Below are positions 54,400 to 60,500 of a stretch of 64,000 nucleotides of DNA, piece after piece. Position numbers and translations under genes: made by a program. The DNA comes from Actinomycetes bacterium (GTDB taxonomy: Bacteria > Actinomycetota > Acidimicrobiia > Acidimicrobiales > SZUA-35). A model generated the notes under the pieces. The model was not told the origin of the DNA and made no database searches. It was given only the letters and a program-made list of their open reading frames with translations. Location: NCBI GenBank assembly GCA_024276425.1, contig JAJRXF010000180.1, forward strand, positions 1-64,000, written 5' to 3'. The number at the start of each line of letters is the position of its first letter. Within the stretch, counting starts at the first letter, position 1.

Positions 54400-54456
54400 T
54401 TCTGGGCGAAGATCCTCACATCCTCAAATCGCGGCCAATGCTGCCGATGACAATGG

Positions 54457-55224
54457 GTGATGATGGCATTGTCCAAATCCCTATTGGCCACAGCTTCGCG
54501 GTCTCGGTTGCGGCTCCTGCTAGCCGTGGTTGTCAGCTTGGGTGCCCTGGCGATGAGTGGATCGGCTGTGCTAGCGGCCGAGGCTGACGACGAGGTAGCC
54601 TTCATCGAGCGAATCAACGATTTGCGCGTCCGTGAGGGGCTCGCTCCGCTTCAAGTTGATAAGGAACTGGAAACTGCCGCTCGAATCTGGGCTAACCAGA
54701 TTAGTATCGATGGTGCGCTGTCTCATGCTCCAGACCTATCGGTCGGGGTCTCATCGGAGTGGGCCAAGCTGGGCGAAAACGTCGGAGTGGCCGACGCTGA
54801 TCAACTTGATGAACTATTCGACGCCTTTGTGAATAGCCCCGGCCACTACGCCAATCTGACAGACCCATCGTTCACCCATATCGGGGTTGGGGTGGTCTAT
54901 GACCAACAGGGACAAATGTGGACTACTCATCGGTTTATGGCCAAAGTCGAGACCACCACGGTCACCCTCGCCCCTACACCAACATCCGAGGTGACCTCCA
55001 CAACCTTGGTTGCTACGACGTCGGTTCCGTCCTCCACATCAACTGTGCCATCCAGCCAACCGACACCAACCACGACTGAACTCAAGGACCCAACCACAAC
55101 GGCGGCACCCACGACGACCGAACTCGTTCGATCAGAGAGTGGGCGCAGCCCGTTACAGGTCGTTCCGACCAAACCAATCGACACCAAAGTATTGGCCGAC
55201 CTCTTCGCCTCGTTGAGTCGCTAG
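54457..55224 (+). CDS. Secreted CAP/SCP-domain protein with Thr/Pro/Ser-rich C-terminal region
   Basis: FIERINDLRVREGLAPLQVDKELETAARIWANQISIDGALSHAPDLS...GENVGVADADQLDELFDAFVNSPGHYANLTDPSFTHIGVGVV. Confidence 0.88.
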   Translation: MMMALSKSLLATASRSRLRLLLAVVVSLGALAMSGSAVLAAEADDEVAFIERINDLRVREGLAPLQVDKELETAARIWANQISIDGALSHAPDLSVGVSSEWAKLGENVGVADADQLDELFDAFVNSPGHYANLTDPSFTHIGVGVVYDQQGQMWTTHRFMAKVETTTVTLAPTPTSEVTSTTLVATTSVPSSTSTVPSSQPTPTTTELKDPTTTAAPTTTELVRSESGRSPLQVVPTKPIDTKVLADLFASLSR

Positions 55225-57311: not shown

Positions 57312-57770
57312 TTAAGAGAAATAAGAAGAAAATCCGATACGTAAGGCTGGTCGAAAAAACTGTTCGATCCATACGTAGATCGACCCAAGCACCCGGTCAA
57401 GTTCGCCGGAGTTGACGAGGCTGTTGTCCACATGGCCTTCAAGGTAGATGCCGTCCTCGTCACCAACGGAGAACTTAGCTCCATAAAGCCGATGGTTCCG
57501 TCGAAGTAGATGGGCGAAGAATTCGACCTCATTGTCAATCGGCCACGGCATGACATAGGCCTCGAAGAAGAGCGTTCTTTGCCCAAGTTCGAACCGGACG
57601 GTAGTGAAATCCTTCTCGTTCCCCTCAAGACGAACGAACCAGCGGCGACTGGGGGCCACACGTTCAACCGAGACTACCGCTGGGTTCGATTCCAGCTGAT
57701 TGTCAAACCAATGATCAAGAAACTCCTCAAGTCGGTGCAGGTTCTCGTCTGTCTGAAGGTTCGGTGTCAA
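57312..57770 (-). CDS. YbjN-domain-like protein
   Basis: FTTVRFELGQRTLFFEAYVMPWPIDNEVEFFAHLLRRNHRLYGAKFSVGDEDGIYLEGHVDNSLVNSGELDRVLGSIYVWIEQFF; adjacent to mshA, a common actinobacterial arrangement. Confidence 0.75.
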   Translation of the reverse strand: MTPNLQTDENLHRLEEFLDHWFDNQLESNPAVVSVERVAPSRRWFVRLEGNEKDFTTVRFELGQRTLFFEAYVMPWPIDNEVEFFAHLLRRNHRLYGAKFSVGDEDGIYLEGHVDNSLVNSGELDRVLGSIYVWIEQFFRPALRIGFSSYFS

Positions 57771-57785: not shown

Positions 57786-59105
57786 CTATTCCGAACACGG
57801 TGCGAGCGTCCGGGTTGTCACATCGGCATAAATCCGCCGAAGGCGGGCGGCCGAGGTACTCCAGGTGTAGTCCGCGGCCCGGGCCGCCGAGGACACCGAC
57901 AGGCGTCGAGCCAGAACCGGGTCACCCAGAATGGCGTCAACCCATTCGGCGTAGAGTGCAGGATCTCTAGAGTCCACGAGATAGCCCGTGGTTCCATGTT
58001 CGACCAACGTCAGCAAACCACCGACAGCCGACGCAATTACGGGTGTTCCGCACGCCGCCGCCTCAAGCGCCACCAATCCAAAGGATTCAGAACGACTCGG
58101 AACCAAACAAAGGTCGGCGGCTCGATAGAACGTAGACAGCAGGTGGTGAGGTTGTGGGGGCACAAACCGAACTCGATCGATTAACCCTAGATCACTAACC
58201 ATCTGCCGGATGCGCTGTACCTCCTGGGCTCCACCAGTCCCGCTCGCGCCACCAACAATCCAAAGTTTGGCGTCAGCCCGCTCAATTTGCGCCAGCGTAG
58301 AGATGGCAACATCCACTCCCTTGAGCGGCTGGATCCGACCAACAAACAGCAGGAATGGAGAGTCGTCTGCTCCCAGAGCCCAGCGAGCTCCCGCCTGACT
58401 CCCAGGGGAAAAGAACGCCTGGTCAACTCCGGGCGTGACAATTTCGACCCGATCCCGATCGACTTCATAGAACTGGGCCAGCTGCTCAGCCTCCGGTTGA
58501 CAGTTGGCCAATACCACATCGGCGCAAGCCATCACGTTGGCCTCAGCCAAAGCCCGCGCCTCAGGCTCCCGATCACCACTGACGGCCTTGACTCGGGCCA
58601 GGGTATGGAAGGTGGTGACCAAGGGCAGATCGAGCTTTCGTTTCACAATCTGACCCGCTACCCCCGAGAGCCAGTAGTTGGCGTGAACTACATCTGGTTG
58701 AAACTCGACGAGATCATCGATCACGCCAACCGCAAACTCTTCAACCAGTCCCGGCAGTTGTTCTTTTGTCGCGTCCGGTGGGCCCGCAGGAATGTGAACA
58801 ACATCGAAGCCGGGCTCTACCTGAACCCGGCGCTGCAACGAAGCGTCCCAAGCCCGGACATAAACCCGACACAGCACACCAGCCTGGGCGAGAGAAGACA
58901 CCAGCTCGCGAACGTACACATTCATGCCTCCACCATCCCCCGTGCCTGGCTGGGCCAGGGGGGACGTGTGCAACGACAAGACGGCTACCCGCCGGACAAA
59001 AGGCTTCAAGGCGTCGGCTTTCTCAGTCGGCTTCTCCCGCCGGACGAGCGTAGCAAGGCGTTGGATCTCCTCATGAGAGAAAGGTATCCACAGAGACTTC
59101 CCCAT
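57786..59105 (-). CDS. mshA: D-inositol-3-phosphate glycosyltransferase (mycothiol biosynthesis); start re-assigned
   Basis: RRVAVLSLHTSPLAQPGTGDGGGMNVYVRELVSSLAQAG, FHTLARVKAV, VPSRSESFGLVALEAAACGTPVIASAVGGL. Confidence 0.92.
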   Translation of the reverse strand: MGKSLWIPFSHEEIQRLATLVRREKPTEKADALKPFVRRVAVLSLHTSPLAQPGTGDGGGMNVYVRELVSSLAQAGVLCRVYVRAWDASLQRRVQVEPGFDVVHIPAGPPDATKEQLPGLVEEFAVGVIDDLVEFQPDVVHANYWLSGVAGQIVKRKLDLPLVTTFHTLARVKAVSGDREPEARALAEANVMACADVVLANCQPEAEQLAQFYEVDRDRVEIVTPGVDQAFFSPGSQAGARWALGADDSPFLLFVGRIQPLKGVDVAISTLAQIERADAKLWIVGGASGTGGAQEVQRIRQMVSDLGLIDRVRFVPPQPHHLLSTFYRAADLCLVPSRSESFGLVALEAAACGTPVIASAVGGLLTLVEHGTTGYLVDSRDPALYAEWVDAILGDPVLARRLSVSSAARAADYTWSTSAARLRRIYADVTTRTLAPCSE

Positions 59106-59604
59106 CTCGATATCTGCGGCCAATTTCGATCTGGATGGTATCGATGCGCTCGTGCAACTGCCGACGAACCGACGACAAGGATGCTTCAAACTCGCCAATC
59201 CGTTCGCACACCATCCGCAGGGAACCATCATCGAGCGAGTCAACCCCGCTGAGATCACCAGGGGAGACCACAGCGTCCAACTCCTCAACCAACATGAGAG
59301 CGATCGATCCAGGCTCGTTGATCACAACGGCCCGGCCGCTGGTCCCTCGAGACTGACTACTCAGGATGTCGGGCAAACTAAAGAGCAGGCCGGGTAGATC
59401 AGATCCATCCCCCTCGGCACCAGCCCTACGCCGTATTTCATGACCAACAATGTCAAGTCGACCCTGGGCAACACGCCGAACCAAGGACACATCATTCTCC
59501 GCCTGAGCGGCCGTGACTCGGGCCTGGCGAAGATCCGGAAGAGGCCGGGTTGTAATGTCGGTGAGAATGTCGTCGTCAAGTAGGCGATTCAGCTGTTCGT
59601 TCAC
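59071..59604 (-). CDS. RsiG-like protein with two helical c-di-GMP signature motifs (putative anti-sigma factor family)
   Basis: ENDVSLVRRVAQGRLD fits E(X)3S(X)2R(X)3Q(X)3D exactly; EASLSSVRRQLHERID fits with H in place of Q. Confidence 0.75.
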   Translation of the reverse strand: MNEQLNRLLDDDILTDITTRPLPDLRQARVTAAQAENDVSLVRRVAQGRLDIVGHEIRRRAGAEGDGSDLPGLLFSLPDILSSQSRGTSGRAVVINEPGSIALMLVEELDAVVSPGDLSGVDSLDDGSLRMVCERIGEFEASLSSVRRQLHERIDTIQIEIGRRYRDGEVSVDTFLS

Positions 59605-59675: not shown

Positions 59676-60500
59676 CTACAGGAGGAGCAACCAGAGCGGG
59701 CCAGCCAAAAGAAGAGAGTCCAGTCGACGCAATCCAGGAGCCCAAGCGTCGCCACGGGGCAAGATTGCCGAACCAAAGATCTGACCCAGCGGACAGCAGG
59801 CGGCAGTCAGGATCGAGAAACTGATGGCGCTGGGACCATCGAAGGGAAGAGGTTTGGCCAAGGCCAATCCCGCGCCAACGACGGCCAAGACGGCTACCCC
59901 AGCAATGGGACCCTCCACCGCGTTGGCCGAGCCGCTCCCAACCAAATAGTCGCCGACCTCATACCCACTAACCAACAAGAACAGAGCAATGGCCGCACCA
60001 ACTCCGCGACCAGTTAAAACGATGAGGGAACCCGCAGCCAGTCCCACCGGTAGGGAAGAACGCACCAAGACCCCAGCAAAGCGGGTTACGTCCTGGTCGC
60101 TTTTGTGCAATACGCCAAGATGAGAGTAAGCCAATCCAGCAAAAGCGAGGACTACGACCCCCAGACCGAGGCCAAAGGTGCCAGCCAATCCGGATAGGGC
60201 GAGAACCGCCGCAAACAACGCACTAACTCGACGGTCCGAAGGAACATAACGAGACCAAGCGTGACCAGTCTGAAGTCCTGCAATCGCTGCTACTGGAACC
60301 ACCACGGCCGCCACCAACCACCCCGAGATCGACATGGCAACAACAATGGAGACGAACCACCCAACACTCAGACCAATAGTTGGCCTATCCATACGGTAGG
60401 GCACGGCATAGCGATCACTCTTCCAGCGCTGTTCCCGATCTTGATTTCGACGGGCACCGACCTGCTTCTTGCGTTGCCTGCGAGTTGATGGGGTCGCCAT
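59676..60500 (-). CDS. Polytopic membrane protein, divergent phosphatidate cytidylyltransferase (CdsA)-like
   Basis: Multiple TMs; C-terminal GSAILPRGDAWAPGLRRLDSLLLAGPLWLLLL resembles the CdsA signature end (GHGG..DRxDSLL..P). Confidence 0.5.
   Translation of the reverse strand: MATPSTRRQRKKQVGARRNQDREQRWKSDRYAVPYRMDRPTIGLSVGWFVSIVVAMSISGWLVAAVVVPVAAIAGLQTGHAWSRYVPSDRRVSALFAAVLALSGLAGTFGLGLGVVVLAFAGLAYSHLGVLHKSDQDVTRFAGVLVRSSLPVGLAAGSLIVLTGRGVGAAIALFLLVSGYEVGDYLVGSGSANAVEGPIAGVAVLAVVGAGLALAKPLPFDGPSAISFSILTAACCPLGQIFGSAILPRGDAWAPGLRRLDSLLLAGPLWLLLL

What the first reader, a model, noticed from the sequence alone, without database searches (positions are those of the whole stretch)
59071..59604. 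RsiG-like protein with paired c-di-GMP signature motifs next to mshA
Seen: residues 36-51 ENDVSLVRRVAQGRLD (59452-59499) match E(X)3S(X)2R(X)3Q(X)3D exactly; residues 140-155 EASLSSVRRQLHERID (59140-59187) match except H for Q. Established: Streptomyces RsiG binds c-di-GMP through two copies of this motif in a coiled coil and sequesters sigma WhiG. Inference: c-di-GMP-gated anti-sigma control in this lineage, possibly of a motility or developmental sigma factor, with a variant second site.
Basis: partly seen in the sequence, partly recalled or inferred. Interest (0 to 1): 0.8.

Follow-up and report, generated by a model that had tools for sequence, protein, structure and literature searches.

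The report
Twin-motif RsiG c-di-GMP anti-sigma factor
The gene encodes an ordinary member of a published bacterial protein family, RsiG, which uses the signal molecule c-di-GMP to hold the sigma factor WhiG inactive; the altered residue in its second binding motif is normal for this bacterial class, and the likely partner and the enzymes that make and break the signal are all in the same genome.

Summary
The ORF at 59071-59604 (-), 177 aa, is a twin-motif RsiG: Pfam PF22802 (1.7e-27), full-length match to S. venezuelae RsiG (2.4e-14), and a predicted two-helix fold whose top PDB hits are all S. venezuelae RsiG. Both refutation tests were passed: the genome (an Acidimicrobiales relative) holds a WhiG orthologue (6e-85 to S. 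venezuelae WhiG, c-di-GMP-contact residues kept) and 23 GGDEF matches. RsiG and WhiG co-occur in 177 of 296 class genomes (100 have neither). His for Gln in motif 2 is not decay: in 91 sampled class RsiGs that position is mostly H or F, none has Gln in both motifs, and a published His-bearing RsiG binds c-di-GMP. Modest additions: (i) an aromatic second site across the class; (ii) the flagellar cluster has its own FliA-like sigma without the contact residues, so WhiG is probably not the flagellar sigma; (iii) WhiG/FliA-type promoter-like sites directly upstream of 4 of 23 GGDEF genes (0 of 400 shuffled patterns), suggesting feedback on c-di-GMP. Twin-motif RsiG was already reported in Acidimicrobiales in 2021. 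New member of a known kind; no binding was measured.

The parts
59071..59604 (-). rsiG: twin-motif RsiG-family anti-sigma factor, 177 aa, GTG start
59425..59541 (-). first long helix of the coiled coil (residues 22-60 in the model)
59452..59499 (-). c-di-GMP motif 1, ENDVSLVRRVAQGRLD, all five motif residues present
59107..59229 (-). second long helix of the coiled coil (residues 126-166 in the model)
59140..59187 (-). c-di-GMP motif 2, EASLSSVRRQLHERID, His at the Gln position as in most of the class
59230..59424 (-). linker between the helices (residues 61-125), the counterpart of the WhiG-contacting loop of S. venezuelae RsiG
   Evidence: model with lower confidence in residues 61-100; role of the loop from PMC8325347
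57786..59105 (-). mshA-like GT4 glycosyltransferase directly downstream; starts at ATG 59105 (overlapping rsiG) or TTG 59009
57312..57770 (-). YbjN-family gene downstream of mshA, part of the conserved neighbourhood
59676..60500 (-). uncharacterised membrane protein gene directly upstream of rsiG, conserved next to rsiG in Acidimicrobiales
   Evidence: (no Pfam match)

Best explanation
The gene encodes a monomeric twin-motif RsiG. Its two long helices form an antiparallel coiled coil that binds a dimer of c-di-GMP, one motif per half. Loaded with c-di-GMP it captures the genome's WhiG (contig C191) and keeps it from RNA polymerase; when c-di-GMP falls, WhiG is released. His in motif 2 stacks on guanine in place of Gln. 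In this genome WhiG is probably not the flagellar sigma, because the flagellar cluster has its own FliA-like factor. Part of the WhiG output is probably a set of GGDEF/EAL enzymes, which would make a feedback loop on c-di-GMP. Shown here: family, fold, partner gene, co-occurrence, promoter-like sites. Inferred: binding, sequestration, regulon.
For: Pfam RsiG 1.7e-27; full-length match to 6pfj_T; E/S/R/D of both motifs invariant or nearly so in an alignment of 19; AlphaFold mean pLDDT 87 with helices 22-60 and 126-166; Foldseek ranks 1-4 all S. venezuelae RsiG, probability 1.00, rank 5 at E 0.41. WhiG: TIGR02479 269.5 bits, 6.4e-85 to S. venezuelae WhiG with PLVKYVAGR matching K57/G61/R62 (contacts described in PMC8325347). 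The two FliA-like paralogues read PLVKHVVFQ and PLVEHIVNR. 23 GGDEF matches. RsiG and WhiG: both 177, RsiG only 7, WhiG only 12, neither 100. 30 of 30 sampled class WhiGs read K-[G/S]-R at the contact positions. The only two sites with at most 1 mismatch to TAAA-N15-GCCGATAA lie 31 and 86 bp before starts of GGDEF-EAL genes; 4 of 23 GGDEF genes carry a site with at most 2 mismatches, against a mean of 0.2 and 0 of 400 shuffled patterns.
Against: No binding or transcription data. The promoter consensus is shared by FliA and WhiG, so the flagellar FliA could be the one that reads the GGDEF promoters. Genome-wide the consensus is not enriched over its reversed control (2 against 14 at 1 mismatch; 130 against 156 at 2 mismatches), and sites with at most 1 mismatch in 12 related genomes were not seen upstream of GGDEF genes among the 28 inspected.
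Confidence: 0.87

Rival explanations
1. It is an RsiG, but its target is the flagellar sigma factor in the C185 flagellar cluster, so c-di-GMP directly gates motility.
For: The genome has a flagellar cluster with a FliA-like sigma. RsiG is enriched in flagellated genomes: 46 of 49 FlhA genomes have RsiG.
Against: 138 of 184 RsiG genomes lack FlhA. The C185 sigma lacks the K57/G61 contact residues (PLVEHIVNR), while the C191 WhiG keeps all three and is as widespread as RsiG.
Confidence: 0.06
2. The second site is degenerate: His disables c-di-GMP binding at motif 2 and the protein works with one site, or without c-di-GMP.
For: One of ten motif residues departs from the original consensus.
Against: H, F or Y at this position occurs in 78 of 91 class RsiGs while E, S, R and D of motif 2 are kept in 87-91 of 91. 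Conexibacter RsiG with His at this position binds c-di-GMP with Kd 25 uM, and the authors judged His able to stack on guanine (PMC8325347).
Confidence: 0.05
3. It is an RsiG-fold protein that has lost sigma binding and serves another c-di-GMP function linked to the neighbouring mycothiol/cell-envelope genes.
For: rsiG sits in a conserved membrane protein-rsiG-mshA-ybjN neighbourhood in Acidimicrobiales, not seen in the Streptomyces loci sampled.
Against: RsiG tracks WhiG across the class. Neighbourhood need not mean shared function; two relatives have proC directly after rsiG with no mshA between (L285, L291).
Confidence: 0.02

Closest known systems
Streptomyces venezuelae RsiG (PDB 6pfj, 6pfv)
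   Same: Two motifs on two long helices, full-length alignment at 2.4e-14, same predicted fold, WhiG partner with K/G/R contacts.
   Different: About 35% identical. His for Gln in motif 2. Next to mshA, whereas no MshA match was found within 3 kb of the sampled Streptomyces rsiG genes. The host genome has a flagellar cluster and is an Acidimicrobiales relative, so the output is probably not sporulation (inference).
Single-motif RsiG of Rubrobacter and Conexibacter (PDB 7lq2-7lq4)
   Same: Same motif and helix; Conexibacter RsiG has His at the Gln position; WhiG-type promoters precede GGDEF/EAL genes in Rubrobacter (PMC8325347), as appears here.
   Different: Those are small homodimers with one motif; this one has both motifs in one chain.
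Twin-motif RsiG of Acidimicrobiales (reported in 3 of 4 species, PMC8325347)
   Same: Same order, same architecture; closest named relatives found here are 42-76% identical.
   Different: No difference in kind. The paper describes Gln-to-His only in motif 1; in this class the substitution is mostly in motif 2.

Membership tests
RsiG (c-di-GMP-dependent anti-sigma of WhiG) | Matches the curated RsiG family model | tested here: met
   PF22802 95.3 bits against cut-off 27, two stretches
RsiG (c-di-GMP-dependent anti-sigma of WhiG) | Two E(X)3S(X)2R(X)3[Q/H](X)3D motifs in one chain | tested here: met
   Residues 36-51 (Q) and 140-155 (H); the [Q/H] form is given in PMC8325347
RsiG (c-di-GMP-dependent anti-sigma of WhiG) | Antiparallel coiled-coil fold of S. 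venezuelae RsiG | tested here: met
   AlphaFold model pLDDT 87; Foldseek ranks 1-4 are RsiG chains, TM 0.62-0.73
RsiG (c-di-GMP-dependent anti-sigma of WhiG) | Cognate WhiG with the c-di-GMP-contact residues in the same genome | tested here: met
   C191 WhiG, PLVKYVAGR
RsiG (c-di-GMP-dependent anti-sigma of WhiG) | Binds c-di-GMP (two molecules per protein) | not testable with these tools
   Needs biochemistry
RsiG (c-di-GMP-dependent anti-sigma of WhiG) | Sequesters WhiG in a c-di-GMP-dependent way | not testable with these tools
   Needs co-purification or a transcription assay; co-occurrence in 177 genomes is only indirect support
WhiG-type sigma regulon (partner system) | Promoters TAAA-N15-GCCGATAA upstream of targets | tested here: inconclusive
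   4 of 23 GGDEF genes have a site, but the consensus is not enriched genome-wide and WhiG cannot be told from FliA by promoter alone

The most novel reading that the evidence does not exclude
In Acidimicrobiia the RsiG-WhiG switch has become mainly a c-di-GMP homeostasis loop: WhiG drives GGDEF-EAL enzymes, is uncoupled from flagella by a separate FliA that lacks the c-di-GMP contacts, and is gated by an RsiG whose second site uses an aromatic residue (His, Phe or Tyr) in place of Gln.
Probability: 0.3. Interest if true: 0.5.

Novelty: new member of a known kind. Interest (0 to 1): 0.3.

Why it matters
It shows that the RsiG-WhiG pair is close to a standard feature of Acidimicrobiia, including many members without flagellar genes, and points to a class where its function is unknown and flagella cannot be the general answer. 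The GGDEF-EAL promoters give a direct, testable hypothesis of feedback, like the one proposed in Rubrobacter.

Tried and rejected
Type IV pili as the general target: strong PilT-family matches do not follow RsiG; for example G223 has RsiG and WhiG but only 2.2e-15 to PilT, while several RsiG-negative f5 genomes have strong PilT. Flagella as the general target: only 46 of 184 RsiG genomes have FlhA. Compensatory coupling of position 12 between the two motifs: Gln-Gln is absent in 91 class proteins, but the tree needs only about 3 changes per site, so independence cannot be tested, and Streptomyces and Frankiales are commonly Gln-Gln. Promoter conservation in relatives: no GGDEF association among the sites inspected. 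A sigma-70 promoter scan of the rsiG neighbourhood found nothing (uninformative in this lineage). A paper search for RsiG in Acidimicrobiia found nothing relevant.

Full report
OBSERVATION. Five fixed residues in a helix could occur by chance, but the whole protein matches Pfam RsiG PF22802 at 1.7e-27 in two stretches, S. venezuelae RsiG over residues 12-176 at 2.4e-14, and the Rubrobacter RsiGs at about 2e-3. The NCBIfam library has no match.

FOLD. An alignment of 19 class members gave an AlphaFold model with mean pLDDT 87.3 and two long helices, residues 22-60 and 126-166. Foldseek against the PDB puts four S. venezuelae RsiG chains first (E 1.4e-5 to 5.1e-5, probability 1.00); the next hit is at E 0.41.

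GENOME. The window lies in a 3.95 Mb, 96% complete genome of 203 contigs. Its closest named relatives by RsiG are Acidimicrobiales and other actinobacterial MAGs, 42-76% identical.

PARTNER. The best FliA/WhiG match (C191:13396-14073, 269.5 bits) is 6.4e-85 to S. venezuelae WhiG. Its PLVKYVAGR keeps K57, G61 and R62, the residues that touch c-di-GMP (PMC8325347). It lies downstream of a dprA-like gene and upstream of genes that look like an M23 peptidase and rpsB-tsf-pyrH-frr, read from ORF sequences by eye; from memory this resembles the Streptomyces whiG locus. The C17 FliA-like sigma lacks G61 and R62, and the C185 one lacks K57 and G61. The C185 sigma sits inside the flagellar cluster with FlhA, so flagella have their own sigma. 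Among 30 class WhiGs, 24 have K-G-R and 6 have K-S-R.

CO-OCCURRENCE. In 296 genomes of the class, RsiG is in 184, a WhiG at about E 1e-60 or better in 189, and both in 177; 100 have neither (the sets were copied by hand from the two tables). FlhA is in only 49, 46 of them with RsiG. PilT does not follow the RsiG pattern cleanly. So neither flagella nor type IV pili is the general target.

THE HIS. At the Gln position, 91 class RsiGs show Q61/H29/Y1 in motif 1 and H57/F18/Q13/Y3 in motif 2, with pairs QH 42, QF 18, HH 15, HQ 12, four others, and no QQ; S and R stay near invariant in both motifs and E and D in most. In 80 named loci, all with Q in motif 1 because the search pattern required QGR, motif 2 is H in 39, F in 8 and Q in 33. 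The Q cases are Streptomyces, Frankiales and kin; Acidimicrobiia have H or F and Nitriliruptoraceae have F. A tree needs about 3 changes per site, so this is a clade trait, not shown to be compensation. The 2021 paper notes Gln-to-His only for motif 1 and shows that Conexibacter RsiG with His binds c-di-GMP (PMC8325347).

NEIGHBOURHOOD. Directly downstream is an mshA-like gene (3c48 at 1.7e-80; below the TIGR03449 cut-off), overlapping or within about 65 bp, followed by a YbjN gene. The membrane protein-rsiG-mshA-ybjN order recurs in Acidimicrobiales, and MshA was not found within 3 kb of rsiG in Streptomyces.

POSSIBLE OUTPUT. The flagellar/WhiG consensus TAAA-N15-GCCGATAA with at most 1 mismatch occurs twice in the genome (reversed control 14). 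Both sites are upstream of GGDEF-EAL genes, 31 bp (C94) and 86 bp (C137) before a start. With 2 mismatches, a C31 GGDEF-EAL gene and a C73 GAF-GGDEF gene also have a site close to the start. In 23 windows upstream of GGDEF genes the count of 4 was reached by 0 of 400 shuffled patterns. Genome-wide there is no enrichment, and related genomes did not show the same association in the sites inspected. In Rubrobacter five WhiG-type promoters sit before GGDEF/EAL genes (PMC8325347), so feedback is plausible but not established here. In Streptomyces a GGDEF-EAL phosphodiesterase, RmdB, binds WhiG directly and displaces RsiG (PMC13232838), which would add a second route if a counterpart exists here; that was not tested.

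CONCLUSION. A real, intact RsiG of a kind already known in this order. The function in Acidimicrobiia is open, and the GGDEF promoters are the lead worth testing.

Noticed in passing
59676-60500 (-): Conserved membrane protein next to rsiG with no Pfam match; its C-terminal sequence looks by eye like a divergent CDP-diglyceride synthase signature.
   Followed up: no
54424-54450 (+): WhiG/FliA-type promoter-like site (TCAA-N15-GCCGATGA, 2 mismatches) just before the ORF at 54457-55224, which looks by eye like a secreted CAP-type protein. About one such site per 60 kb is expected by chance.
   Followed up: no
L010 (G000 C17:21895-22554): A third FliA/WhiG-like sigma outside the flagellar cluster, near a gyrA-like ORF, without the full set of c-di-GMP-contact residues.
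   Followed up: partly
L021, L033, L038, L223, L246, L251, L266: A group of RsiGs (mostly family f2) with Asp for Glu in motif 1 and Phe for Gln in motif 2.
   Followed up: no
L285, L291: rsiG followed directly by proC with no mshA match between, so the mshA linkage can be lost.
   Followed up: no
L311: An RsiG with motif-2 Asp changed to Ala beside mshA, in a record labelled Acidobacteria; probably a mislabelled or chimeric MAG.
   Followed up: no
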